Positions 747 to 51,189 of a DNA stretch of 64,000 nt are shown here, piece by piece. The stretch is from Erigeron canadensis. Lineage: Eukaryota; Streptophyta; Magnoliopsida; Asterales; Asteraceae. The notes under the pieces are model-generated. The model worked only from the letters and a program-made list of their open reading frames with translations. It did not search any database and was not told where the DNA came from. The position numbers were made by a program, and so were the translations under genes. The stretch is from positions 15,254,501 through 15,318,500 of the forward strand of contig NC_057761.1 of assembly GCF_010389155.1 (NCBI RefSeq), read 5' to 3'. The stretch's first letter is position 1. Each line of letters starts with the position of its first letter.

Positions 747-1069
747 TGTTAGAAATCCAAAAATAGTGATACATTGTAATTTAAGTTATGGACTTACTTG
801 TAGTTAAGTCATAAGTTGATGATTTCTAAGGTTGAGGGGCTAATAGTGAGAATTAGCATAGTTGATGTGTTTAGACTATAAATAGCCCTCAATCCCTTAG
901 AAATCATAACAATAAGCATAACTCTTGACATACATTCCATACCATTACACCTGAATAACACACACTTAATCCCAATTCTCTCTCAACACACACACAAACA
1001 CCAAGAACACACACACTAACCAAACGCCATTGTTGATGTGAATTCGAGTGATAAAATCGTGTTGTTACA
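747..1069 (+). repeat. A: 5' LTR (323 bp)
   Basis: It begins TGTTAGAAATCC and ends TTGTTACA, followed at once by the primer site. A TATA box, TATAAATAG, lies at 877-885, so transcription probably starts about 30 bp downstream, defining U3/R. CA-rich repeats fill the R/U5 part. It differs from the 3' LTR by two substitutions: G/T in the 'aaggttga-ggg' stretch and C/T in 'cttaatcc-aatt'. Confidence 0.95.
877..885 (+). promoter_or_regulatory. A: LTR TATA box
   Basis: TATAAATAG sits at about 40% of the LTR length, the normal place for a copia LTR promoter. The 3' LTR copy lies at 12600-12608 and could drive readout into F sequence. Confidence 0.7.
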
Positions 1070-1071
1070 TT

Positions 1072-1083
1072 TGGTATCAGAGC
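1072..1083 (+). other. A: primer-binding site for initiator-Met tRNA
   Basis: TGGTATCAGAGC starts three bases after the 5' LTR. It is complementary to the 3' end of plant initiator methionine tRNA and is the standard minus-strand primer site of plant copia elements. The same 12-mer follows the 5' LTRs of B, C and D. Confidence 0.95.
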
Positions 1084-2230
1084 AAAACATCATTTTGATC
1101 TCGATCCATAACTGAATTCAATCACATTTTCATCAAAAATCACCTTTAATTCTGTTTTTTTTCTGTTTCTGTTCGTTTTTTTCCTCACTGAAAATCCAAA
1201 AAAATTAACCTCTCAAATCACATAAAATCACAGATGTTTGTTCACCGTTCGATTCCTCATAGTTAATAACATAATCCTCTCAAGTTTCATGTTCTAATTT
1301 GATCTGAATCAAAAGTTCAGATTTTGAGTTTTTGGCGCTAAAATTTTGGATTTGATTCTGTTGTGTTATAAGCTAAATTGTGTTAATCGGATCATTGCTG
1401 AGGTGAAAACAAACTGTTTGCAAGTGGTTTCATGTTCCAATTCTCAGAAAATCAAAAGATATTGAAGTTTTAAAAAATCGTCAATGGAGGTGTTCATACT
1501 CAGAGGTTGAAGACGACTGTGTGAAGCTAAAACGATCTTATTTAGATCATTTCAGTTTTTCTACCCTTGATACTTTCATATCAGTATTGTGGCTTGTAAA
1601 ACGATTCAAATTTTGATCGTTTTGACAAGTGTGGTTGTGTTGTGAAGAATTAATTGTGGCTAACTGATCCTTTGGATTGGTTTTGGTCAATTCAATTTCT
1701 TGAAAAATACACAAGTTTTTGAGGAATCCTGAAAAGAAACCAAAACGATCTCTTTTAGATCGTTTTAGTTTTCTTAGAGATCAGAACGATCTCTTTTAGA
1801 TCGTTTCAAGTTTTGCTTGAACATTCTCTGGTTTGATTAATTCGTGAAGAGTTGTGTTTGGGAATCATACTACTCTTGGGTAACTGATCTTCGTGATTGG
1901 TTTTGCTCAATTCATTTCATTCCATTTCATACCAAAACTCTGCCCAAATCATTTCAGAATACTTAGAATTTTTCTTCTTCAAAAAATCGTTTCAAGTTTA
2001 AATCGTTTCATTCTTAATTCAATTTAGATCGTTTCAAATTAAATCATTTCATTCCTGCACATTGAGATCATTTCATTCCTGAAAATTCAGATCGTTTCAT
2101 TCATACTTCAAAACAGATCATTTCATTTTCATTTCAATTCAGATCGTTTCATTTCATTCCAACTTAGATCGTTTCATAGTTTCATATTTTCTTCAAAATC
2201 AATTCAATTCTCAATTCAAATCAATTTCAA
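1084..2230 (+). other. A: 1.15-kb untranslated leader with CGATC inverted repeats
   Basis: This region is noncoding and AT-rich. It contains repeated AAACGATCT and AGATCGTTT words. In the first part they form inverted pairs with short loops (1529-1552, 1593-1629, 1742-1766, 1784-1806). In the last part (about 1985-2190) they become a run of single-orientation copies of the ATCGTTTCAT type. The same organisation is present in D and, with different bases, in C. The role is unknown; palindrome-rich cis-regions are known from maize Sireviruses. Confidence 0.75.
1742..1766 (+). other. A: perfect leader hairpin
   Basis: AAAACGATCT (1742-1751) pairs perfectly with AGATCGTTTT (1757-1766) across a five-base CTTTT loop. 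A second hairpin with the same loop is at 1784-1806. A longer one at 1593-1629 pairs CTTGT with ACAAG outside AAAACGAT/ATCGTTTT. Confidence 0.8.
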
Positions 2231-3811
2231 ATGACTACTCGTGAAGCATTGTCTCTGGGTACTGATACAAGACCACCAGTTCTTTATCGTGGTAACTATG
2301 GACTTTGGAAGAAAAGGTTCATGGATTATGTGGAACGTCAGACAAATGGTCACATGCTTAAGGACTCAATCATCAATGGACTTGCTATGCATCGTCATCC
2401 TACTACCCGTGCTATTTTGACTCCTGATCTTTTGAACGCCGAACAAAGAGATCATACTGCTGCTGACAACAGAGCTAGGTCATGCTTGTACCAAGCACTT
2501 CCTGATGAGATCTATGGCTCAGTTGATTCTTACGAGACAACAAAGGAGATTTGGGATGAAGTTGCTAGACAAATGGAAGGTTCTGATGTAACCTCAACAA
2601 TTCGACTGACAAATGTCTTAACTGAGTTTGACAATTTTCAGAAATCACCAAATGAATCTCTTGAGTCCGTGTACTACAAATTCTGCAATGTGATCAATGA
2701 ACTGAGAAAGAACAAGGTCAAGAAAGATGAGATTGAGCTGAACATCAAATTTATCAAAGCACTTGGTCCCGAATGGGAAGATTATGGAACTCAAATCAAG
2801 CAACATCAAGATCTGACCAAATTCACCATTCATACTCTTTATGAATCTTTCAAGCTGAATGAGAGCAAGGTTCTGAGCAAAAATTCATTCAACAAAGTGC
2901 CAGAAGTTGTATCTACTGATCCTTTGGCATTGGTTGTTGAACGAAAGGTTTCTGAGGCTCTTAAAAGACAATTGACTATTGTTTCTTCGTCTGATGAGGA
3001 GGGAGAAGATTACTTGACTCCAAGAGATGGTGTTCCTGATGAATTCTACCAAGCTCTTGCCGCTGTTACCAAGCATTTCAAGAAAAAGTATTTCAAAGCA
3101 AGGCTAACTAACAACAATCTTCGAACTTCATCAACAAGTGCATTTCCAAAGAAGGAACAATATCATCACAAGAGTTTTGAACAAGGTGAAACAACTGTTT
3201 CCAAGAAAAGAGACAAGAAAGCAGAAAATGAGAAATAAATCATGGAAAAAGAAAAGACATCTGACAAAAAGTGTTACAACTGTGGAATTCCTGGTCATTT
3301 TGCTGTGGATTGCAAGCTGCCTCGCAAGAAGGATTATGCATACTACAAGCAGAAGATGCTTCTGGAAAAGCAAGTTGAAGCCGGTCAAGCCTTGATTGCT
3401 GAAGATGACAAGTGGCTTTTACTTTCTGATGATGAAGATGAAGATCTGTCTGCCAATGTATGTTTCATGGCAAGGTTAAGCAAAGACAAAGTGTTGGAGG
3501 CTGACAACACTGACGAGGAATATCCCGATGATGAGGTAAATCTCGACTCTACTTTTTCATCAATTAAGGATGAAGAGTCTTGTAGAATTGCCTTATCAAA
3601 CTTGACGAATCATTACACTTCTTTAGCCAACAAAAACAAGAAATTGAAAAATAGCATTGTATTTTCAAAAAGGGAACACACAAAACTTCTTGAAGAAAAT
3701 TCTAAACTACTTTTTGAGTATGATTCTATGAAACAAGAATTTCAAAACTATAAAGAACAAATGTTGGTTAAAGAATGTGAAATGAATGTGTCTCCTGACT
3801 CTAAGTTATAG
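2231..3811 (+). pseudogene. gag: A: gag with zinc knuckle, broken by stops
   Basis: The ATG at 2231 starts a capsid-like Gag (MTTREALSLGTDTRPP), with the conserved copia capsid segments TKEIWDEV and LTEFDNF. A CCHC zinc knuckle (CYNCGIPGHFAVDC) lies at 3272-3313. An in-frame TAA at 3236 stands where D has a Gln codon, and TAG at 3809 where D has Leu. The reading continues as an acidic then coiled-coil segment. It would form the virus-like particle; here only a knuckle-less truncated Gag of 335 residues can be made without read-through. Confidence 0.88.
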
Positions 3812-6013
3812 AAAAAGTGTCATAATTTAGAAAAGACCATTCTTGATCTTGAAAAAGCCAATCAAGATATTGAAGTTCAAAAGACCAATGAATGGCTTCG
3901 TGCAAATGCGAGACAAATGGATGTTGATATTCTGAATAAGAAGCTTTAAGAAGCTACACCAAAAACAATTGAACTTGAAAGAAAAGTTTTTGATCTAAAT
4001 CATAACTGTTTTTTAAAAGGCATTGAGATTGAAAATCTTGGAAGACAAATTGAGGAACATAAAAAGAATATACTTTTCTATCAAGAAAAGTTGTACAAAG
4101 TTGAACAAAACCCTCTTTTGGATTTCACTGCCTATTTCAATAAGTTAAAAATTGATAGATCAGAACTTCTTCTTGGGTTAGGATTTGAGAATATCACTCC
4201 ATTGCAAAAAGCCAAAGACAAGATCGAACCCTTGTATGATGAAAAGTTTTTGAGACTTGGTATGGTTTAACAATTCATTCGTCCATTGGATGACGAATTT
4301 GAGACTGATGAAGTTGAGAAAATTGAAAATAATAAATTTTTGGTTAATTATGATGCAATTAATACTTCTTACGAAACGAAAAAGTCATCAAGTTTTGAAT
4401 TAGAAGAAATTGCGTCTAATTTTCAAAACCAAGAATCTGTTGTTTCACCACCTAAACCAACTAAATTGTATGTTCCATCCACATTTTTGGAAAAACAAAT
4501 AGAAGGTTTACAACAAAAGGTGGAATCTCAACAAAAACTTATTAATAATCTACAGTCTCAAAGTCCGAATTCAAAGAATGAATCAGTTATTGTTGATATC
4601 AAGAAAGTTTGTGTGAATGTTTCTACCCAAACTGATTTCAGTCTTTTAGTAGACCATTCCACTCAGACTGCTTGTATTTCATCTACTGGTTCCTCCACCC
4701 AAACCTTGACTGATTCTTTTGAGTATTCATGTCAAAATACAGCTACTGAAATAGCTGATGATTATGTGCAATTTGATTTATCTAATGACGAACTTGCGCA
4801 TAGTTTAGTTTTGATATGGTACTACTTTAGGTTTTTCACTTATGAGTTTTCTGAAGAGTTAGTTGTTCACCCTAAGCTTTATGCTAGTATAGGTGTTGAT
4901 ACTTCTACTCAACTTTCTTGTGAAACCAAAGCAGTGTTAGTTCAAGTTGATTTTATTCCTGAGACAACCAATAGTGTGAAGTTGGAAAACAAAACTCCTG
5001 ATTTTTCAAAATTCTCTCCGGTTTCTACATTCACCAAAAATGATTTTGATAAATTCATGGAGGGAGAATATGTTTTTGATTCTGAAACTGAGAAAAAGAT
5101 TGAATCTACCAAAATCAAAGTTGAATCTCCAAAATCGTTTTTCAAAGCTCCAACTTCACATTACTCAAAGAAACGGGTTATTTACAAACCCATCAAGACT
5201 GAACCAAAGACTGTCACCAAACCAAGAATCAATAAGTTAAAAACAAAGTGTCCTACCCCAGAAAAGCATGTTAAAACCAAACAAGATGAGACCAAACCCA
5301 AAATCAAATACAACAAAGTGAAACTTCTGGAAATCAATTCAAATGTTTCTTTGTCTAGCTCTCATTCTAGTTTAAATTCTAAAGTGTCTAAGTCTAGTTC
5401 AGTTTTGCTAACTAGGGATGCTTCAAATGGTGCAACTAGGTATAGGGATAGATATGGCTGGTTTTCTCATGATAAACCTAAGAAACAAGAAGTTTCCGCA
5501 CCGCCAAAAGAGTCTAAAAAGATAAAAGTGCTTCAAAACTCTCGTTCTAATCTTCTTAGTGTCAATTCGACAGGTGGAAAGAGCTTAATTAGTGAGACCA
5601 AATGGGTAGCTAAGTCATTAGTACCTAAGTTCACTAATGTTGATAAAAAGAAGAAAAAGCGAAGAAGAAAAGATGGTAGTAAGAAGAAGCATGTTTCTGT
5701 TAAGTCAAACAATTTATCTTTTAAGTCTTATGTGTTAAACAATGTTAATGGTGCCAAGGCTAGGCCTTGTGATGTTGTAAACAATGTTAATTCTTGTTCT
5801 CATATGCATGGTTTGAATGCTGGTAAACATGTGACTTTTGATTCGTGTGTTAATATTCGTTTGTTTAATCCAAATGTGCTTGTTGATAATGTGCTTGTTA
5901 ACAAGTATGTTGATTCGAAAGCATGTTTGTATGCATCTCCTAAGTTATATCCCCTGCCTGTATTAACTAACCACAAAGGACCCGTCTCTAAGTGGGTACC
6001 TAAAGTTGGTTAA
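3812..6013 (+). pseudogene. A: long coiled-coil Gag-Pol spacer with stops
   Basis: This continues Gag as a Glu/Lys-rich coiled coil, followed by a Ser/Thr/Lys-rich tail that ends WVPKVG and TAA. Stops at 3946 and 4268 (both TAA) replace Gln codons in D; the frame is open from 4286 to 6013. The spacer is unusually long for copia. A basic KKKKRRRKDGSKKK patch near 5650-5690 could be a nuclear or nucleic-acid-binding signal (inference). The TAA is followed by ATTTTTGATTGCAG, which resembles a 3' splice site, immediately before Pol. Confidence 0.8.
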
Positions 6014-6021
6014 ATTTTTGA

Positions 6022-9000
6022 TTGCAGGAAATAACCATCTGTGTATGGATACTCGATTCTGGGTGTTCAAAACACATGACTGGCAATAAATCATTGCTCA
6101 AGAATTTTGTTGAAAGATTCATGGGAACTGTTCGTTTCGGAAACAACAATTTCGCTCCAATTCTAGGTTATGGAGATATTGAAAGAAACGGAATTGTCAT
6201 CAAGAAAGTTCATTATGTTGAAGGCCTGAGTCATAACTTGTTCAGTGTTGGACAGTTTTGTGACAACAATTTTCAAGTTCTTTTTCGACAATCTCTGTGC
6301 AAAGTCCAAACTCTAGATGGAATTGATATCCTATGCGGAGATCATGAAGACAATCTTTTCTCAGTTAATCTTGATGATAACCAACCAACTGATAATATCT
6401 GTCTTGTTTCAAAAGCTACTTCGAAAAATTCGTGGTTGTGGCATAGAAGGCTTTCTCACTTGAATTATCAAACCATCAATGCTTTAGTCAACAAGCAACT
6501 TGTTGAAGGCTTGCCTGACTACAAATATGAGAGTGAGCATGTCTGTCCTTCTTGTGCAGTTGGGAAGATCAAGAGAACTTCTCATAAACCAAAGAAAATT
6601 CCACACACTTTGGCACCTCTTCATTTGCTTCACATGGATCTTTGTGGGCCTATGAAAGTACAAAGTAGAAACGGGAAGAGATATATTCTGGTTATCATTG
6701 ATGATTATTCTAGATACACTTGGGTCAAGTTTCTTGCTTCAAAAGATGAAACAACTCAAATTTTGATCGATTTCATCACTTCCACTCAAGTGAACCTTCA
6801 ACTTCCAGTCCGTTATATCCGTTCAGATAACGGTACTGAGTTCAAAAATGCCATCTTCAATGAATTTTGCAAATCAAAAGGCATTACTCACCAATTCTCT
6901 GCTGTCCGAACCCCGCAACAAAATGGTGTTGTTGAAAGGAGAAATCGTACGCTGGTGGAAGCAGCAAGAACAATGCTTGCTTATTCCAAGTTACCATCAA
7001 ACATGTGGGCTGAAGCTGTTGACACTGCCTGTCATACTCAAAATCGGTCAAACATCAATCAGCGTCATGAGAAGACTCCTTATGAGGTTATTAATAAACG
7101 CAAACCCAACATAAATTACTTCCATATTTTTAGGTGTGTCTGTTATACCTTGAATGATCGGGAAAATGTTGGAAAATTTGAAAGGAAAGGTGACGAAGGT
7201 TACTTTGTTGGTTACTCAAAGACATCGATTGCATATCGCATCTTCAATCGTCGAACAAACACGATTCAAGAAACCATGAATGTTTGGTTTGACGAGATGT
7301 CTGGCATGATATTTGAACAAGAAAGCTTGCTACCAACAATTAATGATCTAAGTAATTCAAGTGCTTCCTCAAGGACGTCTACTTTAGCTTCAAAATTTAA
7401 GAAATATCCAACTCCAACAAGTGAAGAGCTAGATATTCTTTTCGAAGAATTCTACAACTCAAAACCGATTCAAGAAAAGGAACCTCAAGTCATCAATGAA
7501 CCAATTCTGAACAATGACCCCATTCAAACAAATGAATCAATTCCTGACAACAATCATGAATCATCTTCAAATTTTACAGAGCAAGAAGAATCATCTTCAA
7601 GTGATATTTATTCTCAAAAGAATGTTCAAGAACAACCTTCTCAAATCACCCAAACAAAAAATCCATCAAATACTCCAAATGTGTATGTACCACTGGATTT
7701 TGATCATCCAAATTTTGAGGAAAGAGTTATTCCAAGCTATGATTCCATTGCTCAACAGAACTCTGGATTTAATGATGGTAATGTTGACATTCATCAACAA
7801 GATCCTCTTCCTCATGACAACAAGTGGTCACGTATGCGTAAAGATCATCCTACAGAACAGATCATCGGAGATCCACAAGCTGGTGTTTCTACCCGTACTA
7901 CAGTCAATGAGTGTCTTGTTGCACTTTCACTGAGTAACATTGAACCCAAAACTGTCTCTGAAGCTCTTTGTGATCCAGAATGGGTTAAAGCAATGCAAGA
8001 TGAATTAGCTCAGTTTGAGAGACTAAAGGTATGGAGATTGGTTCCAAATCCAAGGAAAGAAGAACCAATTCGCACCAAGTGGATTTTCAAGAACAAGAAG
8101 GATGAAAATGGAGTTGTAGTAAGGAACAAAACTAGATTGGTTGCAAAGGGTTACTGCCAACAACCTGGTGTGGATTTTGACGAAACTTTCGCTCCTATTG
8201 CAAGAATGGAGGCCATTCGTATATTCTTAGCTTATGCCGCATTCAGAAACTTCACAGTGTTTCAAATGGATGTGAAGACAGCATTCTTGAATGGAGAACT
8301 CAAAGAAGAAGTTTACGTGGAGCAACCTGAAGGTTTTGTTGATCCTAAGAAGCCAAACCATGTCTACAGGTTAGACAAGGCCCTCTATGGTTTGAAGCAG
8401 GCACCCCGAGCATGGTATGATTCCTTATCTACTTTCTTACTCAAAGGAGGCTTTACCAAAGGTACTATTGACCCTACCCTGTTTATTCGTAAGCAAGGTA
8501 AACATGTTTTACTTGTCCAAATATATGTTGATGACATTATTTTTGGGTCAACCAGTCAAACTTTTTGTCGAAATTTTTCATCTCTAATGGTCAATCATTT
8601 TGAAATGAGCATGATTGGGGAAATGAAATACTTTTTGGGTCTACAAATCAAACAATTACCAACTGGTATTTTTATATCACAAGGTAAGTACATAAAAGAT
8701 ATGTTGAAAAAGTTTGAAATGACTAATTGTACTTCAATTTCAACCCCAATGGCTGCTCGTACAAACATTAATGCTAATAAAAATGGGAAACCATTTGACC
8801 AAAAGAGGTATAGAAGCATGATTGGTTCGTTGTTGTATCTTACAGCATCTCGCCTAGATATAATGTTTGCAACATGTATGTGTGCTAGGTATCAAGCCGC
8901 TCCGACTGATTTACATTACCAAGCTGTGAAACGAATTTTTCGTTATCTGAAGGGTACACCCAATCTTGGTCTCTGGTATCCAAGGGATACTGGATTCAAT

Positions 9001-9471
9001 TTAACTGCCTATTCAGATGCAGATCATGCAGGTTGTAAGCTTGATCGCAAGAGCACATCTGGTACTTTACAATTCTTAGGGGATAAGATTGTAAGTTGGT
9101 CATCCAAAAAGCAAAATTGCGTATCACTGTCAACAGCAGAGGCTGAATATGTAGCTGCTGCTAGTCGTTGTGCTCAAGTGTTATGGATGAAAACACAACT
9201 TACCGACTATGGTCTGAAATATGATCGTGTCCCTATCTATTGTGATTCACAAAGTGCCATTGCAATTGTTGTCAACTCAGTCAATCACTCACGCTCAAAG
9301 CACATTGATGTGAGATATCATTTTCTCAAAGATCATGTTGAGAAAGGTGACATCGAACTCTACTTCGTGGGAACTGACCACCAACTCCCTGATTTGTTCA
9401 CAAAATCACTGGACGAAAAGAGGTTTAATTTCTTAATCTCTAAACTTGGTATGCTAAATCTTGATCCTTAA
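6022..9471 (+). CDS. pol: A: intact Pol (protease, integrase, RT, RNase H)
   Basis: This is one open frame of 1149 codons. Protease: [10 protein letters not shown], residues about 11-20. Pre-integrase HHCC: WHRRLSH near 139 and CPSC near 174. Integrase [12 protein letters not shown] (about 203), SDNGTEF (about 268) and NGVVERRNR (about 303). [13 protein letters not shown] and the YVDD catalytic motif near 834. RNase [10 protein letters not shown] near 997 and STAEAEYVA. The frame has no ATG; the first in-frame codon after a TGA is TTG at 6022, so it needs a fusion or spliced message. Catalytic residues look intact. RNase H is followed by the usual [11 protein letters not shown] ending. Confidence 0.93.
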
Positions 9472-9614
9472 TTACCTTTACCATGGAATGAATTCTTGAT
9501 TCATTTTTCAAAAATTTTAAACAATTGAAAAACCAAAAATCAAATACAAAAATATAAAATTTTGAAAAATAACAAAAAGATTTTCTTAAATTTTCTTTCT
9601 TTTTACTTCAAAGT

Positions 9615-9811
9615 GGCTTGCATATATTCTGTATGCAACCCGTTCTTCATTAAACTATTTATTTTAAAAGTGGTTTACATATACTCTGTATGTAACCCGT
9701 GTTTAAATGATGTATTTATTACCTCGTGGCTTATGCACACTCAGTGTATAACCCGTGCTTATTTGTGTTATTTATTTTATAAATAGCTTGCAAATACTCT
9801 GTATGCAACCC
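9615..9811 (+). repeat. A: four tandem small hairpins, 57-bp period
   Basis: Units start near 9615, 9672, 9728 and 9785. Each pairs around an ATTCTG/ACTCTG/ACTCA loop. Stems: TTGCATA/TATGCAA, TTACATA/TATGTAA, TTATGCAC/GTGTATAA and TTGCAAA/TATGCAA, usually flanked by GG and CC. The stem bases differ between units while pairing is kept. D has four units at 51190-51384. Confidence 0.85.
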
Positions 9812-9868
9812 AGTTTTAAAAAGAAAAAATATTTATGTTTCAAAATTGAAATTAATTCATGTTGTTAT

Positions 9869-9946
9869 ACATATAAATTGATATAGGATAACGTGGAATT
9901 GAACGCCTTTGTGTACTTCCAAGTGGTCTTATATGAATGTATATGT
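9869..9946 (+). ncRNA. A: stem-loop 1 with GAACGCC loop
   Basis: Arms 9869-9898 and 9917-9946 are 30 nt each and pair at 26 of 30 positions including two G-U pairs. The 18-nt loop is TTGAACGCCTTTGTGTAC. It lies 400 bp after the pol stop. The type is a predicted structured element of the genomic RNA, not a known ncRNA family. D carries the same structure at 51054-51131. Confidence 0.7.
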
Positions 9947-9997
9947 ATAATACAAGATGTTGATTGCAATTTTGTTACACCTGTTTCAAAAACTCTC

Positions 9998-10069
9998 AAT
10001 TGTTGATATGAGAAGCAAAGGATTGAACGCCTTTGTGTACTCCTGAGTTGTCTCATCTTGAACAATTGA
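9998..10069 (+). ncRNA. A: stem-loop 2 with identical loop
   Basis: CAATTGTT (9998-10005) pairs with AACAATTG (10062-10069), ATGAGA with TCTCAT, and AGGA with TCCT, separated by small internal loops. The loop at 10024-10041 is again TTGAACGCCTTTGTGTAC, identical to stem-loop 1 although the arms are unrelated. The same structure occurs in D at 50899-50970. Confidence 0.7.
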
Positions 10070-11071
10070 TTGAGTTCACTTTTCATAAAACCTGTTTTGA
10101 TCTCACATAAATCATTTTTGCTCCACCTTTTCTATGGAAATCTGTTTGATCTATCGTTGCATAGATTAAGGGGGAGTTTGTGATTTCAAAAAAACTCTTT
10201 GAAAATTATTTGTGCAATTTATGGAGTTTGTGTGTGACAATGTGTTTTTAAAACATTTTTTTTCACATATAATGATTTTTTTCAAAAAACATTTAATTCA
10301 AAGGAAGTTCGGTGTTTGGTTTGCACAAGAGCGACTAGGTTTTTCTCAAAATTCTACTCCATGAATTTCATCATTGCCGATGAGTTCTAACCCCAGAGTA
10401 TTCATTTTTTTTCATTAGAAAGTAAGGGTATTTTGAGAGATGATGAATTCGTGCAACTACGTTGGAGGGAGTAAAGTCGAAAAGTGAGAGGTTATGGTGA
10501 TAATGTTGTGAGAAAAGGGTTAAAAGAATTGATACCCTTCCCTAAAATTCTCAAATCGCCGGGTAAAACACATTTCTATCGGATGTCATTTGTTGATATC
10601 TCGGTATTAAAGAAGCCTTCATGGACCCAATGAAGCGATGCACATCTTTACCTAACCACTCAAGTGTTTCTTAACAAATGCTTGTTTTATTTCTCATGAA
10701 GGTTTTCTCATTTCTATTGACTCTTCATTTGGAAGATGTTGATATTGAAAAAGGGTGACACTCTGCTTCAGTCCCCGACTTCATTTGATCACTTTGTGTC
10801 TAGAGCTCTCGTGATTGATCATTAATTTGATCGTTATTCATTCTTTAGGACACATTTACGTCATATCTTTGTGATATACATGCTTATCTTTGTGATATAG
10901 CCGGAACATTTGTAGTAATATCTTAAATGATATTTCACGATGATCAAATGGAAATCCTACCATTGCTAACATCATTTCCAGCTTTGAATGTAGGTCTCAT
11001 AATTGCATTTGTGTAATTATTGAGTTAACAAGAAGTCTATTGTGACCTTGGATTTTTTTCCTAAAAGTCTT

Positions 11072-11134
11072 TAAGGATTGTAGAACATGGTTATCGAACG
11101 CTTAGGTGACACTGACCATGGTTTACATTCTTTG
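11072..11134 (+). ncRNA. A: stem-loop 3 with variant loop
   Basis: Arms 11072-11091 and 11115-11134 pair at 18 of 20 positions, counting three G-U pairs. The loop is TATCGAACGC then TTAGGTGACACTG. It keeps CGAACGC and GTGACACTG, which also occur together in B (44632-44655) and F (22880-22900). D copy: 49904-49966. Confidence 0.65.
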
Positions 11135-12458
11135 AAGCATTCTTGAGGTTGAAAAGCCAAAAGACCGAACTATGTTAGAGGTTTGCTTTGTGCTTTTCTC
11201 AATGATACATAGGAAATCCGATAAATGAAAATACATTTCCTTCGGTCATTTCATTAATCCTTTCGATTTTTGAATGCAAATGGATCATTCTTATCCGGTT
11301 TCTTTTCTCATCACCCAAACACAGAAAACATCAACACCATGATACAATGTTTATCCCAAACAACTTCAATCTTACATTTTAGTCATCCATAGGAACAATT
11401 GGGTTGGTTTATATGGATAGATTGATGTTTTGATGGTTGATAATTCTCCATGAGCATAATGTCTAGATTTTAATCATAATTATTTCTTTTAAACAATCGA
11501 TTCAATCAATGTTTGCATAATGACATTGGTTCTCAACTTTGTCATTATGAGGGGGAGAAAATAGTATGATTGATTATTGATTAGGAGAAGAAATTAGAAT
11601 GATGAATAAGGACAAGGAGAAAAGTTTGTGTTTGGTTGTTTCAATTGCTTTCAAAGATACTATCATTCAGCTTCTTGTTAAAAGTTTTCAATTTTATTTG
11701 GAGTTCTTTTCTCTTAGATTTCATTTGTGATCATTCTTCTTCAAAGTTTGTTTGATTTCATTCCAAACTGCAAAGGTTCCAAATTCAACTTGAAGACTAT
11801 TCATCTCGAAAGAAAAGGATATACATTCAAGATTTAACGAAGAGACTGTGATTACTCATGAATTGGGGGGGAGCATGATTAATTCGTAAGAGACTTGTCA
11901 AAACCTCATTCAAATATTTACTCTCAAAAGTGCCTTTAAATGATGTGACAAAGATCAAAGCTTCAAAGGACAAAAGATTGAAGATTCGAGACAAAGAAGA
12001 TAAGCTTCAAAAAGAGTCTTCATCAAATTAAAGATCTTCAAGTCATATAACAACACTTTACCAAAAGCTACATTGTACATATCAAGGGGGAGAGTACATA
12101 TCTCTGAAAAATCATTCCAAGATTTCAAAGAAAAGACTTCAAGATTCGAAGATTGAAGAATTTAAGACAAGTTCATACCTTCCGCACCTCAAAAGACAAC
12201 TCTGATTCATGATTCAACAATTTTCAAAGATTCAAGACATACACACACTCATCATTCTCTGTTCTATAAAAACACTGATAATCAACAGATGATCTAACTT
12301 CAAGAAGTCCAAGACCAAGACTGAATCAAGTTCTCCAAAGACAATGAGAAAGGTTTGAAGACTTATTTCCACACACCAATTGTCTTCATGACCAGGCTCA
12401 TCAAATTCATTCCTACAAGACAAAACAACACGTACTTCAGATCTTACAATATATCACT

Positions 12459-12469
12459 AAGGGGGAGAA
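12459..12469 (+). other. A: 3' polypurine tract
   Basis: AAGGGGGAGAA abuts the 3' LTR and would prime plus-strand DNA synthesis. Four further G-rich tracts lie upstream; multiple polypurine tracts are described for Sireviruses. Confidence 0.9.
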
Positions 12470-12792
12470 TGTTAGAAATCCAAAAATAGTGATACATTGT
12501 AATTTAAGTTATGGACTTACTTGTAGTTAAGTCATAAGTTGATGATTTCTAAGGTTGATGGGCTAATAGTGAGAATTAGCATAGTTGATGTGTTTAGACT
12601 ATAAATAGCCCTCAATCCCTTAGAAATCATAACAATAAGCATAACTCTTGACATACATTCCATACCATTACACCTGAATAACACACACTTAATCCTAATT
12701 CTCTCTCAACACACACACAAACACCAAGAACACACACACTAACCAAACGCCATTGTTGATGTGAATTCGAGTGATAAAATCGTGTTGTTACA
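12470..12792 (+). repeat. A: 3' LTR (323 bp)
   Basis: Same length and termini as the 5' LTR, with two substitutions. It ends TTGTTACA at 12792 and is followed by the second GTTCT. F's coding sequence resumes directly after. Confidence 0.95.
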
Positions 12793-12797
12793 GTTCT
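12793..12797 (+). repeat. Target-site duplication of A, right copy (GTTCT)
   Basis: Second copy of the five target bases. Joining 746 to 12798 restores the F reading frame through the KGIVLDLEGN segment. Confidence 0.95.
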
Positions 12798-20829: not shown

Positions 20830-20890
20830 AAGGCAGTGTGATAAGTAATGATAAATTCAACCCCTTTGAATTTTGTTAAAATTTTAAGGG

Positions 20891-20972
20891 CAAGCTGTGC
20901 TTGACTCAGACTACCTGTTGTTACTTGGTAAAAATCAAGTTAAAATGGGTAAGTTGAGTCTGACCCAGCTTG
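20891..20972 (+). ncRNA. F: predicted long stem-loop after pol
   Basis: CAAGCTG (20891-20897) pairs with CAGCTTG (20966-20972), and GACTCA (20903-20908) with TGAGTC (20955-20960). CTACC can pair near GGTAAG, and an inner ACTTG/CAAGT hairpin caps it. It stands 60 bp after the pol stop, the same region that holds stem-loops in A, B and D. The rest of 20830-21334 is AT-rich noncoding with a TA repeat at about 21179-21196. Confidence 0.5.
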
Positions 20973-21334
20973 GGAGCTGTTTTTATTATTAAATATCTCA
21001 GTGCGTTTTATTATTTTGCATATTTTATTTAGTTTAACTTATATATCTTTTCCTGATCAATGAGTGAGTAACACGTGTGGAGGCAACGAACTTTTATTGC
21101 AAAAGTACCCCCACTGGTTGTTCTCATCCAATCAAATCATTTCTCTCTCTTCCCTCCAAACGGTTATTTTAAAATATGTATATATATATATATACACTTT
21201 GTTTAACCCTTGTCCCAAACAAATTGTATTTTTCATACTCTTATTTTTCTCTCATCTTATTTTAACCTAATCTGTGTTCTGTTCCATCAAACTTTTTAGT
21301 CTTCTTCTTTTGTTCTTTAATTATCTAATTATAA

Positions 21335-24300
21335 ATGGCTTCATCATCATCATCTCAATCTGCTAATAACTCTAACAATAACGATTCCTTATCTGAATCT
21401 GGGTTTCTACACCCAGCTCCGGTAAGTGCGGTCAAGCTTTCACCCTATGTTGTGGGTTCTGATGTAGTTGTAAGCCCGGCTGATCTTGATACTGGTAAAA
21501 TCAAGATCGTCAATCTTGTCTCCGCCAATATTCATCCACCTTCTTGGGCAGAAGGTTATGATGAAATTGTTGCTTTTTTATGGCATCATCCCTTTGGCAA
21601 GATATTGATTGAGAAGCCGGATGTGGTGTACTAGGACATGCTCTGCGAGTTTTGGGCAAGCTGTGTGGTGGGTCAGATGAAGAAAGGACATGCCGTAATT
21701 CGAGGCACCATTCTTAATGGTAAAAAACAGGTATTCATTACTTTAATAAGACTTAGGTCTGCTTTTGAACTGTCTTACATGCCTGAAGTTGATTATGAAA
21801 ATGTTGTCTCTCACACTAAAGCCAAAAACATTTTACCTATTTGTGGATATTCAGGTCCATTGGCTTCAATGATTAAAATGAAATATTTAACTGGCATTTG
21901 GAATTATCTTCTAAGTACCTTATGTAAATCTTTACAAATGAAGGCAGGCAGTTTTGATTAGCCTAATGTTCTTGAATTACAACTTTTTCATTCCTTGGTC
22001 ACTATGACTAGAGTAGATTATGCAGGACTTATATTTAAAGACTTAGTTGGCCGAGTCAACAATAAGACTTTTACCATACCTTATGGTAGAATTCTTGGTC
22101 TCATTATCGAAGCAATTGTTGATGGCGACTTCAGTTTGGCAACTGGCCAGACTGTGGAGTGCAAGGCCATTAATACTAATATTTTTAACAGTCCCAAGGT
22201 AACTGCGCAGGGATTAACCCAAGCAATGCAGGTTTACCTTGATTTTTGCAAGAGAAGACAAAGGGAACAAGCATTGGAGGAAGCTGCCAATTAGGAGAGT
22301 CAAGGTACTCAATCTCTTGAACCCTTAAACTCTTCCAAATCTACTTCTTCTTCTTCTTCTGAGGGTGAAGAGTTGGCCACAACATCAGCCACTCTAGCCA
22401 CACACTCAACCACCATTTCCAAATCCGCCTCCAAAAGACACATTGTTGAGGACTTAGTACCTCGCAATGTATACAAAAAGAAAAGATCCAAGAGAAATAT
22501 ATCAGGTTTAGGGGTTGACAAAACAACCATAAGAATTAAAGTCTCCCAAGCACATTAGAAGCTGAGGAACGTTCCAAAGCTGACTCTGCCACCCAAGCTG
22601 ATAAGCCGGATTCACCACGCCCATCTGCACTCTCCCAAAAGAGTGTAGACGAGTCAAAAGGAACAACTACTTCTGTCCAACCCTCCAAAAAGGGTGAAGA
22701 CATTGAAACAAAGACCTCCTCCCAAGGTCATACTGTGTCTAAGCCTAATTTGCCATCATCAACCTCCCAAAAGGCTGATGATATCACTAAAGGGACACCA
22801 GAGGATCCTGCCCAGATCCAAAAAGAGTCAGAGTCTGTGCACATGTTGACTGAGGATGATCAACCAAAGGATGTTAGCATCGAACGCCTAAGTGACACTG
22901 CTCTTATTCCCCAAGCTGGTCAGATTCCTACTTTCTTACACTCTGAGTCTACACTGGTTGTCAATGCCCTTTCTAGATCACAAAGAGGGGTACAGGCCTC
23001 AATTCTCCCTCGTGATACTTTGGTGACACAACACACCTCTGTTGAAGGGCAATCATCTACCCTTAACATTACACCTGCATGGTCTGTGTCTGCATCTGTC
23101 CTTAGACAGAGGAATCCTGTAGGTTACATGGCTCTCTTTAGGGAGGTCATGTTAGCCCCTTGTGCAGCAAAGGGAACCATTGATGGTCCTCACGATGTCA
23201 ATGAGAATCAGATAACTATCTCCGGAAGTGATTCTTCATTCGATGATGTGCTTGCCCATCCATCCTCAAGGGATGCTCTGATGGAAGATGCCAGTGGAGG
23301 TGCTGATCAAAATCAAGATCAACAAATTCCCACTGGCCCTCAATCTGAATTACATGTCAATCCTTCTCAGATTGTTCAGCACATCATCATTTCTGAAAGA
23401 TCTGCTCATGAGACTCATTCTCATGAGAAAATGCACCAAAACTCCCTTAGCCTCCACCCCCTTCTATATGAGCCCAATGACCCTGATTTTAAGGATTGCA
23501 GGCTGCTCTTTCCAGAGTCAATGGCCTTTAGGCCAACTGCAAGTTCTTCCCAAGCTACCACTATCTCATCCTTAGATATGGTAAATCAGCTCACTGAGTT
23601 CATATCAACCTCTAAGGTTGAGAACTTAAAGTTGGTTAAAGGCTTGGTCAAGATCCAAAAGGATCAGGAATTGACGGATAAGAAGGTAGAGAAGCTGTGT
23701 CAAGATCACAAAGAAACTGAAGAAAGGGTGATAAAGGCACTTGAAAATATGGAGAAGAGCCAGAGCAAATTGACAGAGTCTCTTGATGGGTTGACTAAAG
23801 CAATGATTGAACAAAATGAATTAAACAAGAGTACTCTGGGTCAGATTGAGAAGAATGCAATCAAGTTCACTAGAGATGTATCCATTGAACTAAAAAATTC
23901 CAACAAGTCACAAACTGAATTCAAGAAAGAGTTAGTGGATATCTCTAAAGGTGTACAATCTAACATGGTCAACCTTCATAATGATTTTATTGATCTACAC
24001 AGATCCTAGTATGCAAACAACTTCAGATTTGACATGTTAAATACAAGACTCAGTGGAATCTTTGCTACTCCAGTAAGCTCCTTCCCTCCTAATGATGACA
24101 AAAAGGGGGAGAAGAAAAGAAGTGAAAGGAGTGAGGCTGAAATTGAGCAAGAAAGGATTGTAGTAGAGAAAGAGACTGCTGAGTATCTGAAAAAGTTGGA
24201 TGCAAGATATGCCAAGGCCAGAAGAGAAAAGGAGGCCAATGATAGAAAAATGGTTGTCTATGGCTCTAATCCAAATGAGGAAGTTGAGGAGAAGATAAAA

Positions 24301-32789: not shown

Positions 32790-33360
32790 GATCGTCTTCT
32801 AGTCATTGATGCAGGTATTTTCTTATCTAATGGTACAAGAGGTAAAATGGACAGCTAGGTAACCAAAGTATAAATTCGGGATAAAACAAGTCTGGATAGG
32901 TTTTCTCTGATTTAGTAAACATTTAGTGAGCTAAACATGATTGAAAACGATATTGTTGTTGGTAGATGTGTCAAAATAGGTGGGTTGGGTAACTGGTTGA
33001 AGTTGAGGTGAGAACTCGTTATAAAGTGAAGGTCAAAATCAGTTATAAGTAGATTAAATAAAATTGGTACAAAAAGATCGTCTTCTAAGTCATTGATGCA
33101 GGTACTTTCTTATCTAAAGGTACACGAGGTAAAATGGACGGCTAGGTAACCAAAGTATAAATTCAGGATAAAACAAGTCTGGATAGGTTTTCTCTAGTTT
33201 AGTAAACATTTAATGAGCTAAACATGATTGAAAACGATATTGTTGGTAAATGTGTTAAAATAGGTGGGATGGGTAACTGGTTGAAGTTGTAGGTGAGAAC
33301 TCGTTAAAAAGTGAAGGTCAAAATCAGTTATAAGTAGATTAACTAAAATTGGTACAAAAA
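32790..33360. repeat. 285-bp tandem duplication
   Basis: Unit 1 (32790-33075) and unit 2 (33076-33360) are about 95% alike by eye, both beginning GATCGTCTTCTA and ending GGTACAAAAA. They are noncoding. The low divergence suggests a duplication younger than the surrounding decay. Confidence 0.85.
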
Positions 33361-33766
33361 GATAAAATACTGTATTTAGATATTGCATTAAGCTTCAAGA
33401 ACAAGATGACATATGATTGTTAGATTGTTAATCAAGTATTTTGGTATGTAGGGTTTAACCAATGTTGAGCTTTGGGTTTAGATGAACAAAATCTTAGAGA
33501 AAACAATTTGGCCCGACATATAGGCTTCTATTTAAGGAGCATTAGATACATGTAACAATCGGTTTTTTAAGTTTGTCATTTTGTTTAAGGTTTGCTTAAG
33601 ATTTTTCTTTCTTAGCCTGTGGTAGCATTCTGTATTCTGTTCTTTGATCATGCTATCCAAGAACTGTTGTTACAGTCGTGTGATTACAAGTCTTTTAAGA
33701 GTTTAAGCTTTTGTAGTTGGTGGTCTGCTGGAAATTTTGTTTTATTTATCTCCATTTCTATTTCAG

Positions 33767-36419: not shown

Positions 36420-37421
36420 ATGGTTCTTTATAAGAGGTATAAAGTTTGAATCATGTCCTAGACGGATTTCTTGGCGGTGGCTAGAGAAATTTAGTTTTAA
36501 CAATGTTAGTTCATGTATTAGGGATTTAGTTGGGACTAAAACTCAGTCACTAACAAATTTCGTTCTAAAATTTTAATTTGGTTGTGCAAACATTTTTGTA
36601 ACTGAAATTTAGTCTCAAGTTTTTCACCATGTATTAAGCGTTTAGTTGGGACTGAAATTTAGTCACTAACAAGTTTCCCTCTAAAAAGTTTTATTGCCAA
36701 ACATTTTTGTAACTGAAATTTAGTATTAAATATGTTGCCTATGTATTAGGGTTTCGTTGAGACTAAAATTCAGTAACTAAGAAATTACTTTAGTTTTAAC
36801 TATGATGCTCATGTATTAGGGATTTACTTGGAACTAAAACTTAGTCACTAACAAAATTCGTTCCAAAACTTTTGGTTGTGCAAACATTTTTGTAACTGAA
36901 GTTTAGTCTCAAGTTTTCCACCATGTATTAAGCGTTTAGTTGGCACTGAAATTTAGTCACTAACAAGTTTCCCTCTAAAAAGTTTTATTGCGCAAACAAT
37001 TTTGTAACTGAAATATGGTCTTAAATATGTTGCGCATGTATTAGGGTTTAGTTGGGACTGAAATTCAGTAACTAACAAATTTTCCTCCAAAACTTTTTTA
37101 TTGCATAAACTTGTTTGTAACTGAAATTCAGTCTTAATTATGTTGTCCATGTATTATGGGTTAAGATGCGACTGATATTCAATTACCAACAAATTTCCCT
37201 CCAAAATTTTTTATTGTTGTGATATATTGGTAACTAAAATGTAGTCTCAAATATAGTAGCGATGAACTAGGGACTGATTTTTAGTTGCCACAATCAGTCA
37301 ATAAAATGTCAATCCTTAAAAACATTAGTAACTAATTTTTCAGTTACTGATACTATGTATCTAAGACTGAAATATCAGTCTCTAAAAATTTAGTCCCTCA
37401 AGAACACTTTTTTTTGTAGTG
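36420..37421. mobile_element. End of a second CACTA-like element with long subterminal repeats
   Basis: About seven diverged tandem units of roughly 110-130 bp carry ACTGAAATTTAGTC, CACTAACAAATTTCCCTCC and CAAACATTTTTGTAACTG. They end in ACACTTTTTTTTGTAGTG at 37421, whose complement starts CACTACAAAAAAAAGTG, a classic CACTA terminus. No transposase and no left terminus was found, so this is a partial or nonautonomous copy. Confidence 0.65.
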
Positions 37422-44200: not shown

Positions 44201-44636
44201 TTATTCAGATTCAGATCATGCAGGTTGTAAGATAGACAGGAAATCCACTACTGGTGGATGTCATTTCCTTGGTGGCAAACTGGTAAGCTGGACCAGTAAG
44301 AAGCAAACTTCAGTTTCACTCTCCACTGCTGAAGCTGAATATGTATCTACAGCCAGTTGTTGTGCTCAGATACTCTGGATGAAGAACCAGTTGCTTGATT
44401 ATGGTCTTAAGTATACAAAATCTCCAATTTTCTGTGATAATACCAGTGCCATTGCTATCTCAAACAATCCAGTCATGCACTCCAAAACCAAGCACATTGA
44501 ACTCAGGTACCATTTTATTCGTGATCATGTTATGAAAGATGACGTAGAAATCCATTTCATCCCCACTGACAAACAACTCGCTGACATTTTTACTAAACCT
44601 TTGGATGAACCCATAAATCTGGAACCTTTGTTATGA
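41282..44636 (+). pseudogene. pol: B: pol, degenerate
   Basis: Protease reads WYLDSAAGRTMTG: the active D-S-G is D-S-A. The HHCC histidines (WHKRLSH) lie in another frame near 41694. Integrase shows LLHMDLFGP-like HMLHMDLFGP, SDNGTEF and, after a shift near 42130, NGVVERKNR. RT from WVIAMQEEL through [11 protein letters not shown] stops at TGA 43613, where relatives have Arg; YVDD follows at about 43731. RNase H (YSDSDHAGC) is open from 43866 to 44636. The usual [11 protein letters not shown] end is missing after LDE. Clearly dead. Confidence 0.87.
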
Positions 44637-44676
44637 ACGCCTTTGTGACACTGACAGGATTCTTGATTCCAGATTT
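44615..44676 (+). ncRNA. B: stem-loop 1 with GAACGCC motif
   Basis: AAATCTGGAA (44615-44624) pairs perfectly with TTCCAGATTT (44667-44676). The loop region holds TATGAACGCC and TTTGTGACACTGAC (44632-44655), the same motif as in A and F. It overlaps the present pol stop (TGA at 44634). Confidence 0.6.
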
Positions 44677-44739
44677 GTAAGTCTATGCCAGCTTGGCTAT
44701 CGAACGCCTCTGTGTACTATCATTGCACTATAGACTTAC
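44677..44739 (+). ncRNA. B: stem-loop 2 with GAACGCC motif
   Basis: GTAAGTCTAT (44677-44686) pairs perfectly with ATAGACTTAC (44730-44739). The loop contains TATCGAACGCC and TCTGTGTACTAT. It begins where stem-loop 1 ends. Confidence 0.6.
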
Positions 44740-44818
44740 TGATCACCATTCCAGGGGGAAAGGACTCGACCAAAATTTTCTATCTTTTAATTGACCAAAG
44801 TGAGAATTTATTTGTTTT

Positions 44819-44890
44819 ACTGGAATCTCGTATGCCAGTTTGGATATTGAACGCCTTTCTGTACTATTCTTACTGGTGTGAGGGTCCAGT
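44819..44890 (+). ncRNA. B: stem-loop 3 with GAACGCC motif
   Basis: Nested stems ACTGGA/TCCAGT (44819, 44885) and GCCAGT/ACTGGT (44834, 44872; one G-U pair) enclose TTGAACGCCTTTCTGTAC (44847-44864), one base different from A's loop. A polypurine run AGGGGGAAAGGA lies before it at 44753. Confidence 0.55.
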
Positions 44891-48952: not shown

Positions 48953-49903
48953 GGCATCTCCAGAGAGACTGAAGAAGAAGTAAGACTGGCAAAGGTAAGA
49001 CAGGAATACAATGAAAGAATGCACTGTAGAGCTGATGCCAAAATTCGAATCTTGAAGTCTTTTCTTTGAAGTCTTGGAATGAATTTTCAGAAATATGTAC
49101 TCTCCCCCTTGATGTGTGCAATGTAGCTTTTGGTAAAGTGTTGTTGTATGACTTGAAGATCTTTAATTTGATGAAGACTCTTTTTGAAGCTTTTCTTCTT
49201 TTGTCTTGAATCTTCAGCCTTTTGTCCTTTGAAGCTTTCATCTTTGTCACATCGTCTTGAACACTTTTGAGAGTAAACATTTCAATAAGGGTTTGGAAAT
49301 TCTTTTATGAAAGTAATCATGCTCCTCCTCAATTCATGAGTAATCACAGTCTTTGATTGGAGCATTTTTGAACTTTTTGTAACATCTTGAGTGAGCATCC
49401 TTTCATTATTGATCTTGATCTTCTTATCCTTAAAATCATTCTAATTTCTTCCTCAATCAAAAATCAATCATACTATTTCCCCCCCCCCCTCTCATAATGA
49501 CAATGTTGGGAACCAATGTCATTATGCAAACATTGATTGAAAAGAATGTCAAAAGAAATCAAAAGATCCATAGCGCAATGTTGTTTACACAAAGATATAT
49601 TAACTAACAACTCATCAACCCAAACCATTAATCCAACCCAAATAACCCTATGGGTGACTAAGATGTAAGGTTGAAGTTGTTGGTATAAGCATTTGATTAT
49701 GATGTTGGTGTTTTCTGTGTTGGGGTGATGAGAAAAGAAACCGGATAAGAATGATCCGTTTGCATTCAAAAATCGAAAGGATTAATGAAATGACCGAAAG
49801 AAATGTATACCATTTATCGGATTTCCTATGTATCATTGAGAAATGCACAAAGCAAACCTCTAACATAGTTTGGTCTTTTGGCTTTCCAATCTAAAGATTG
49901 CTT

Positions 49904-49966
49904 CAAAGAATGTAAACCATGGTCAGTGTCACCTAAGCGTTCGATAACCATGTTCTACTATCCTTA
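49904..49966 (-). ncRNA. D: stem-loop 3
   Basis: Counterpart of A 11072-11134, with the same CGAACGCTTAGGTGACACTG loop on the minus strand. One arm base differs and costs one pair. Confidence 0.6.
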
Positions 49967-50898
49967 AAGACTTTTAGGAAAAAAATCCAAGGTCACAATA
50001 GACTTCTTGTTAACTCAATAATTACACAAATGCAATTATGAGAGCTACGTTCAAAATTGGAGATGATATTAGCAATGGTAGGATTTCCATTTGATCATCT
50101 TGAAATATCAATTAAGATATCACTACAAATGTTCCGGCTATATCACAAAGATAAGCATGTATATCACAAAGATATGATGCAAATGTGTCCTAAAGAATGA
50201 ATAACGATCAAATTAATGATCAATCACGAGAGTTCTAGACACAAAGTGATCAAATGAAGTCGGGGACTGGAGCAGAGTGTCACCCTTTTTTCAATATCAA
50301 CGTCTTCCAAATGAAGAGTCAATAGAAATGAGAAAATCTCCGTGAGAAATAAAACAAGCATTGGTTAAGAAACAATTGAGTGGTTAGGTAAAGATGTGCA
50401 TCGCTTCACTGGGTCCATGAAGGCTTCTTCAATACCGAGATATCAACAAATGACATCCGATAGAAATGTGTTTTACCCGGCGATTTGAGAATTTTAGAGA
50501 AGGGTATCAAGTCTTTTAACCCTTTTCTCACAACATTATCACCATAACCTCTCACTTTTCGACTGTACTCCCTCCAACTTAGTTGCACGAATTCATCATC
50601 ACTCAAAAAGACCCTCACTATCTAATGAAAGAAGTGAAAACTCCGGGGTTTGAGAAAAACCTAGTCGCTCATGTGCAAACTAAACACCGAACTTCCTTTG
50701 AAGAAAATATTTTAGAAAAAAAAACATCAAATGTGAAAAAAAAAAGTTTAAAAAACACATTTGAAGTTTGAAAGAGATTTGAAATCACAAACTCCCCCTT
50801 AACTATGCAAAGATAGATCAAAAATATTTTCATAGAAAAGGTGGAGCAAAAATGATTTGTGTGAAATCAAAACAGGTTTTATGAAAAGTGAACTCAAT

Positions 50899-50970
50899 CA
50901 ATTGTTTAAGATGAGACAACTCAGGAGTACACAAAGGCGTTCAATCCTTTGCTTCTCATATCAACAATTG
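50899..50970 (-). ncRNA. D: stem-loop 2
   Basis: Counterpart of A 9998-10069; the loop TTGAACGCCTTTGTGTAC is unchanged (50927-50944), with CAATTGTT/AACAATTG-type arms. Confidence 0.65.
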
Positions 50971-51053
50971 AGAGTTTTTGAAACAAGTGCAACAAAATTG
51001 CAATCAACATCTTGTGATACTCAGGTTATCATGATGAAAATCCAATATATTAC

Positions 51054-51131
51054 ACATATACATTCATATAAGACCACTTGGAAGTACACAAAGGCGTTCA
51101 ATTCCGCGTTATCTTATATCAATTTATATGT
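51054..51131 (-). ncRNA. D: stem-loop 1
   Basis: Counterpart of A 9869-9946; the loop is identical (51084-51101). A's G-U pair at arm position 18 is an A-U pair here; one other pair is lost. Confidence 0.68.
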
Positions 51132-51189
51132 ATAACAACATGAATTAATTCCAACTTTGAAACATAAATAATTTTTTCTTTTTAAAACC

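What the first reader, a model, noticed from the sequence alone, without database searches (positions are those of the whole stretch)
9869..11134. One loop motif, GAACGCCTTTGTGTAC, shown by unrelated stems in three copia families
After pol, A has three stem-loops (9869-9946, 9998-10069, 11072-11134), D the same three, and B three more (44615-44890). F has a motif copy at 22880. Arms differ completely from stem to stem, yet the loop keeps (T/C)GAACGC(C/T), two or three variable bases, then GTGTACT or GTGACACTGAC. Stem 1 of A pairs at 26 of 30 positions. Conserved loop with free arms is the mark of a protein- or RNA-binding RNA element. By analogy, some retroviruses carry repeated-loop export elements (for example the MPMV constitutive transport element) in the 3' part of the genome. 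Export, packaging or dimerisation are candidate roles. I know of no description of this motif.
Basis: partly seen in the sequence, partly recalled or inferred. Interest (0 to 1): 0.88.

Follow-up and report, generated by a model that had tools for sequence, protein, structure and literature searches.

The report
Conserved RNA hairpin in plant retrotransposons
Several groups of a common plant "jumping gene" carry the same small folded RNA signal, usually in repeated copies, downstream of their shared enzyme gene; it is kept so strictly that it is probably a handle by which some protein recognises the element's RNA.

Summary
Ten copies sit where stated. A covariance model finds these ten in the window at 35 bits or more; the next match has 13. 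The window lies in a 426-Mb plant genome, probably Erigeron canadensis. The exact 17-mer occurs 1,859 times there and its sister form 487 times; reversed controls give 0. By my sorting six Sirevirus-type groups carry it. Of 20 elements chosen by RNase H alone, all close to A, 18 hold two copies each. A group without detectable pol keeps it too. Arms change in compensating pairs.

Two corrections. The "loop" is itself folded: A-U closing pair, UY bulge, G-C pair, A.A mismatch, then W-CGC:GUG-W with a free tetraloop; the inner A-U flips to U-A in the pol-less group. And tandem hairpins are partly duplicates that diverged by compensation.

Best reading: a cis-acting, protein-binding hairpin array on full-length Sirevirus RNA, most likely for Gag recognition or packaging; host-mediated export or stability is the main rival. 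The role is inferred. Spread beyond this genome is unknown (0 of 3 contigs of other plants).

The parts
9863..9952 (+). A, hairpin 1 (type 1; core 9899-9917)
   Evidence: class H1
9991..10076 (+). A, hairpin 2 (type 1; core 10023-10041)
   Evidence: class H2
11069..11137 (+). A, hairpin 3 (type 2, GTGACACTGAC form)
   Evidence: class H3
51048..51137 (-). D, hairpin 1 (type 1), same family as A
50891..50976 (-). D, hairpin 2 (type 1)
49901..49969 (-). D, hairpin 3 (type 2)
44613..44678 (+). B, hairpin 1 (type 2), at the end of pol
44679..44739 (+). B, hairpin 2 (type 1); weakest stem of the three (z -1.7)
44819..44890 (+). B, hairpin 3 (type 1)
22876..22902 (+). F, type-2 copy with a 4-bp closing stem only, inside an open frame
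747..12792 (+). Element A: LTRs 747-1069 and 12470-12792, GTTCT at 742-746 and 12793-12797, primer site 1072, pol frame 6022-9471

Best explanation
A family of structured, cis-acting RNA hairpins lies in the 3' linker of Sirevirus-type copia retrotransposons of this plant. Each variable stem presents one conserved apical domain: a closing A-U pair, a UY bulge, a G-C pair, an A.A mismatch, then a short inner stem W-C-G-C with G-U-G-(U, AU or AC) that keeps a G.U wobble, capped by a variable tetraloop. Elements carry one to three tandem copies, some with a further type-2 copy. Shown by computation: presence, sense-strand placement, conservation, paired arms, and retention both in elements without detectable pol and in a family without an ORF3. 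Inferred: a protein shared by these elements' life cycle reads the bulge and mismatch region on the full-length RNA. The most likely role is recognition of the genomic RNA by Gag for packaging or assembly, several copies giving cooperative binding. My odds: about 0.9 that it is a selected RNA structure, 0.75 that a protein reads it, 0.4 for packaging.
For: Genome counts with zero in the reversed controls. Blastn of linkers: the hairpin is nearly the only similarity among A, B, F, G and K; exceptions are the polypurine region shared by G and K (1e-14) and two short matches at E 0.037 and 0.040. Over 15 hairpins the pair below the closing pair is AU 5, UA 5, GC 2, UG 2, CG 1, none unpaired; covariation 0.276 against 0.089 in shuffles (0 of 500) and above all six slid registers. 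With 69 model hits (56 distinct; alignment fitted to the model) the inner pair is A-U 43, U-A 5, unpaired 8, and the closing pair A-U 52, G-C 3, unpaired 1. By class, 94.8-98.4% of cells paired, with double-sided changes in H2+H2b 5 of 23 pairs, K1+K2 8 of 42, G 3 of 39, H2b 2 of 33. Majority base over 14 hairpin types (chosen through the motif): core 0.93, arms 0.55. Chosen by RNase H only: 18 of 20 elements, 36 hairpins, all on the sense strand; identity to A: core 0.966 and 0.994, arms 0.91-0.96, other linker stretches 0.85-0.92. Group G: gag and ORF3 flank the hairpins and no pol match lies in 5 of 5 loci, so it is not tied to pol. A's linker has no frame of 150 aa or more and no match to G's ORF3, so it is not tied to ORF3. 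The tetraloop is free: 14 different ones among the 100 listed type-2 sites (my count), pointing to the bulge and mismatch region as the part that is read.
Against: No binding partner, no probing, no packaging data. Position varies: right after the pol stop in B and Z, 0.3-0.55 kb later in A, about 2 kb later in K. F's copy has no long stem, and one of its protein relatives (P0002) has lost the sequence there. No double-sided changes within H1, H2 or H3 alone; covariation is not significant in the set made mostly of type-2 hairpins (139 of 500 shuffles as high). Related sequences can exceed shuffles without any structure, and many double-sided changes are single events between classes. 2 of 20 RNase H-chosen elements have no hairpin in the stretch read (L145, L152). 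Three Sirevirus-like contigs of other plants lack it. The search for A's ORF3 is insensitive: the same query also missed F's. Packaging signals of other retroelements mostly lie near the 5' end (recalled).
Confidence: 0.45

Rival explanations
1. Host-factor element: the hairpins recruit a plant protein that exports the full-length RNA from the nucleus or shields its long 3' part from decay, as repeated 3' elements do in some retroviruses (recalled analogy).
For: One apex is shared by groups whose gag proteins differ widely (G's gag 43-52% identical to those of A, D and E), as a single host partner would explain; it lies downstream of pol in every group seen; other plants' linkers carry a different repeated hairpin.
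Against: No partner known; nothing shows that these RNAs need export or protection; two forms of the apex coexist in A and in B.
Confidence: 0.25
2. Translation element: the hairpins act at the pol stop or upstream of ORF3, for instance in readthrough, reinitiation or internal entry for the ORF3 protein.
For: Type-2 hairpin starts next to the pol stop codon in B and Z copies (read by eye); hairpins precede ORF3 in K and G.
Against: A's linker has no frame of 150 aa or more and keeps the hairpins; G has no pol match; distances to the stop codon vary from nearly 0 to 2 kb.
Confidence: 0.12
3. Dimerisation element: the 3' half of the apex (GUGUAC, or GUGACAC with one mismatch) is nearly self-complementary and could kiss between two RNAs.
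For: Self-complementarity read directly from the sequence, G.U pairs allowed.
Against: It does not explain the fixed 5' half GAACGC; the inner pair's compensating change shows that these bases pair within the hairpin; the GUGAU form and B3's CUGUAC spoil the symmetry.
Confidence: 0.08
4. No function: recent copies of a few elements plus tandem duplication, with the apex similar by descent alone.
For: Copies within a family are close relatives; tandem hairpins are partly duplicates; no double-sided change in three of the classes.
Against: Linkers of different groups are otherwise unalignable while the core is kept; core exceeds arms and linker in the RNase H-chosen sample; compensating changes in arms and inner stem.
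Confidence: 0.05
5. DNA-level signal, such as a recombination site or a protein site on DNA.
For: L095 joins arms of two hairpins at the apex.
Against: Compensating arm changes point to folded RNA or single-stranded DNA; orientation is always sense in 20 of 20 long loci.
Confidence: 0.05

Closest known systems
MPMV constitutive transport element and similar retroviral 3' export elements (recalled, not tested)
   Same: Repeated conserved motif displayed by stems in the 3' part of a retroelement genome.
   Different: No sequence relation shown; no Rfam family reaches its gathering score anywhere in the window; plant copia host; partner such as NXF1 untested.
Sirevirus linker features of Bousios et al. 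2010 (PMC2829016; abstract, passages, sections 6 and 9 read): multiple AGGGGGAG tracts, PPT/LTR inverted repeat, palindromic repeated motifs (RM)
   Same: Short strongly conserved sequences inside an otherwise unalignable Sirevirus linker; RMs lie upstream of the ENV gene, as the hairpins lie upstream of ORF3 in K and G.
   Different: Twelve of the 13 RMs are palindromes with a CGG-CCG core; this motif is an asymmetric folded apex on variable stems. It is not described in the parts read.
TR-GAG-type elements: LTR elements with gag and no pol (search listing only)
   Same: Group G has gag and no detectable pol.
   Different: G also has ORF3 and these hairpins; LTRs and mobility of G were not tested.

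Membership tests
Sirevirus (host elements) | Several AGGGGGAG-like polypurine tracts in the linker | tested here: met
   AGGGGGA(A/G) in A's linker at 10169, 11550, 12085 and 12460; feature as in PMC2829016 section 6. The other groups were not scored one by one.
Sirevirus (host elements) | Copia-type pol | tested here: met
   RVT_2 1.7e-79, rve, gag_pre-integrs in A's pol
Sirevirus (host elements) | Placement of RT inside the genus | not tested
   No tree was built
Sirevirus repeated motif (RM) | Palindrome with CGG-CCG core | tested here: not met
   Core UYGAACGC-N4-GUG(U/AU/AC)AC against Table 3 of PMC2829016
Retroviral CTE-like export element | Repeated conserved motif in stems, 3' part of the genome | tested here: met
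Retroviral CTE-like export element | Promotes export of unspliced RNA through a host factor | not testable with these tools
   Needs reporter and binding assays
Packaging signal (psi-like) | Retained by elements that depend on proteins made elsewhere | tested here: inconclusive
   Group G: 5 of 5 loci without a pol match keep it; G makes its own gag and its mobility was not shown
Packaging signal (psi-like) | Binds Gag or nucleocapsid and is needed for encapsidation | not testable with these tools
   Needs binding and particle assays
miRNA precursor | Arms conserved, loop free | tested here: not met
   Reverse pattern: core 0.93, arms 0.55

The most novel reading that the evidence does not exclude
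An undescribed RNA recognition module of plant Sireviruses: groups in one host genome whose linkers are otherwise unalignable, including one without detectable pol, share a single folded RNA handle read by the same protein, while Sireviruses of other plants use different repeated hairpins in the same linker (L066, L067). The linker would be a fast-evolving array of RNA tags that decides whose RNA is packaged or exported.
Probability: 0.35. Interest if true: 0.85.

Novelty: new variant of a known kind. Interest (0 to 1): 0.72.

Why it matters
Sireviruses make up large parts of some plant genomes (in maize about a fifth, PMC3599292, abstract start), yet the purpose of their long, diverse linker is largely unexplained. 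A compact folded element with more than two thousand exact or near-exact copies in one genome is a defined bait for finding the protein that recognises these RNAs. Its retention in pol-less elements may explain how those are mobilised in trans. The strict core also makes a sensitive marker for such elements.

Tried and rejected
Long-range pairing of the loop with the rest of A: 15 complementary runs of 9 nt or more against 18.1 in shuffles; the single 13-nt run (shuffled maximum 11.1 on average) has no counterpart in D. Rfam: no match at the gathering score. IMG/VR scans with pol found no relative; a 15-base motif pattern gave 65 matches, about chance by my estimate, and I did not inspect them; longer patterns gave 0. 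A coding explanation (frame IERL.DT) fits F and A3 but not the other copies, and P0002 has lost it while P0001 keeps it. Concerted T/C choice among hairpins of one element: 33 of 40 pairs agree; not pursued, since subfamily relatedness may explain it. Two other repeated hairpins (P in A; Q in L066/L067) are not related to the motif by alignment (0.97 and 0.74 of shuffles as high); P against Q gave 0.0095, only suggestive. An RNase H-anchored search for the B/F lineage never got an answer, so whether other Sirevirus lineages of this plant lack the motif is open.

Sampling caveats: L077-L136 were picked by the exact 17-mer (60 clusters of the 100 places listed), L157-L176 by the type-2 pattern. 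Not chosen by the motif: the window's elements with a post-pol region (A, B, D, F: 4 of 4 carry it) and L137-L156 (20 of the 39 best-ranked of 150 listed RNase H matches, none on contig C1, all close to A).

Full report
What is there. The window is 64 kb of a 426-Mb genome. The three proteins found for the F open frame come from Erigeron canadensis, so I take the plant to be that species; this is an inference. Element A looks like a complete copia-type insertion: LTRs at 747-1069 and 12470-12792 (99.1% identical over the 326-bp blast piece), GTTCT on both sides, a TGGTATCAGAGC primer site at 1072, an 1149-codon frame ending at 9471 with RVT_2, rve and related Pfam domains, and four AGGGGGA(A/G) tracts in the linker. 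Multiple such tracts are a hallmark of Sireviruses in Bousios et al. 2010 (PMC2829016, section 6). D is the same family on the other strand; B and F are diverged (RNase H pieces 61% and 65% identical to A).

The motif. Ten copies lie after pol in A, D, B and F. The covariance model finds these ten and nothing else near their scores (window copies were part of the training set). Nine have a stem by folding, with B2 the weakest (z -1.7), and F only four base pairs by eye. Stable hairpins are common in this AT-rich DNA (62 of 2,664 pieces at z <= -3.5), so the argument rests on the conserved apex plus paired arms and not on stability alone.

Genome-wide. The exact 17-mer GAACGCCTTTGTGTACT occurs 948 + 911 times, its backward control 0 times. 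GAACGCNNNNGTGACACTGA occurs 242 + 245 times, control 0. From the 100 listed type-1 places I fetched 60 clusters: 20 as 8-kb loci and 40 as short stretches. In 20 of 20 long loci a gag, pol or ORF3 match lies on the same strand as the hairpins, in L077 only a weak gag match and in L079 gag alone. The 105 motif sites with enough flank fall into classes: H1, H2, H2b (tandem) and H3 (about 1 kb further) in the A family; K (L078: pol end, 2 kb of linker, two hairpins, ORF3); G (five of the long loci, two or three hairpins each); B; F; three sites had arms of two classes. Type-2 sampling added more B copies and a group Z, in which the first hairpin starts next to the pol stop codon (read by eye) and a second follows about 70 nt later in a GTGATACT form. 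The window's B copy lacks the last codons of pol, so its frame ends on the TGA inside the motif.

Structure. On 15 representative hairpins the pair below the closing pair is AU 5, UA 5, GC 2, UG 2, CG 1, none unpaired. Over nine pairs, 93.3% of cells are paired against 84.3% after shuffling (0 of 500 as high), the covariation score is 0.276 against 0.089 (0 of 500), and the slid registers reach at most 60.2% and 0.146; the number of pairs with a change on both sides, 3, is not unusual (88 of 500). I set the structure by eye with folding output in hand, and related sequences can exceed shuffles, so the slid registers matter more. With 69 model hits (56 distinct) the inner pair is A-U 43, U-A 5, unpaired 8, and the closing pair A-U 52, G-C 3, unpaired 1. 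The U-A form (GATCGC...GTGAAC) comes from the second and third hairpins of group G. Hence the apparent loop is a folded apex: A-U, UY bulge, G-C, A.A, W-CGC with GUG-W, tetraloop. In type 2 the W-W pair is replaced by a wider internal loop. The tetraloop is free. Within classes, double-sided changes are found in H2+H2b (5 of 23 pairs), K1+K2 (8 of 42), G (3 of 39) and H2b alone (2 of 33), and in none of H1, H2 or H3 alone. The set made mostly of type-2 hairpins shows no significant covariation (139 of 500 shuffles as high).

Conservation without selection by motif. I searched the genome with the RNase H of A (150 scored matches of 8,932 candidates) and fetched 651 nt downstream of 20 of the 39 best-ranked, none on contig C1. 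Eighteen hold two hairpins each, all in sense; L145 and L152 hold none. Identity to A: core H1 345 of 357 (0.966), core H2 340 of 342 (0.994), arms 0.91-0.96, four other linker stretches 0.85-0.92. These are all close relatives of A, so this tests the family and not the genus.

Between groups. Blastn of linkers from A, B, F, G, K and three contigs of other plants (plus strand, E up to 0.05) finds the hairpin as almost the only similarity among A, B, F, G and K. The exceptions are the polypurine region shared by G and K, a 24-nt match of A and G (E 0.037) and an 18-nt match of B and G (E 0.040). L066 and L067 share only a different repeated hairpin and its flank; L068 matches none. The model finds no copy in L066, L067 or L068 (best 13.2 bits). 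These contigs come from bacterial assemblies and look like plant contamination; their species are unknown.

How it may work. Group G has gag (43-52% identical to those of A, D and E) and ORF3 with no pol match between them in 5 of 5 loci, and keeps the hairpins; aligned pieces of its copies are 66-95% alike, so the signal has been kept through a long history. A's linker has no frame of 150 aa or more and no match to G's ORF3 (an insensitive test, since F's ORF3 was missed too), yet keeps the hairpins. A role shared by both is not likely to be pol or ORF3 expression. A recognition signal on the genomic RNA fits best; I rank packaging by Gag first and host-mediated export or stability second. 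Conserved bulge, mismatch and wobble next to a free tetraloop suggest a protein that reads the internal loop. None of this was tested in the laboratory.

Known or new. A text search for the 16-base sequence in both strands and alphabets found no paper among 5.39 million open ones (supplements not searched). 'Sirevirus' with 'hairpin' gave 8 papers; titles and abstract starts show nothing on this motif, and I did not read them. Bousios et al. 2010 describe other linker motifs (abstract, passages, sections 6 and 9). Searches gave no paper, 63 one and 65 three, none on such an element by title and abstract start. Subscription papers are not covered.

Noticed in passing
window 9602-9825 (+) and 51181-51340 (-): Another tandem hairpin repeat (P, about 57-nt period) just after pol in A (4 copies) and D (3), with compensating stem changes by eye.
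   Followed up: partly
L066 6419-6730, L067 3360-4110: Sirevirus-like linkers of other plants share a different repeated hairpin, nearly the only similarity between the two; it may be distantly related to repeat P.
   Followed up: partly
L083, L084, L086, L092, L096: Elements with gag and ORF3 but no detectable pol between them; perhaps an old non-autonomous lineage related to K, with which it shares the polypurine region.
   Followed up: partly
L095 3968: One hairpin joins the 5' arm of H1 to the 3' arm of H2, as if a deletion or template switch had happened between the identical apices.
   Followed up: partly
window 44600-44640: This B copy lacks the last codons of pol seen in other B copies, so its frame runs into the hairpin.
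   Followed up: partly
window 20881-20976 (+): A strong hairpin (z -4.1) right after the pol end of F without the motif.
   Followed up: no
L066, L067 (Labilibacter sediminis scaffolds 42 and 46), L068 (Eubacterium MAG): Bacterial genome records that encode plant-type copia pol, probably plant contamination.
   Followed up: no
window 32790-33363 and 36486-37272: Direct tandem repeats of roughly 287 and 300 bp outside the elements discussed.
   Followed up: no
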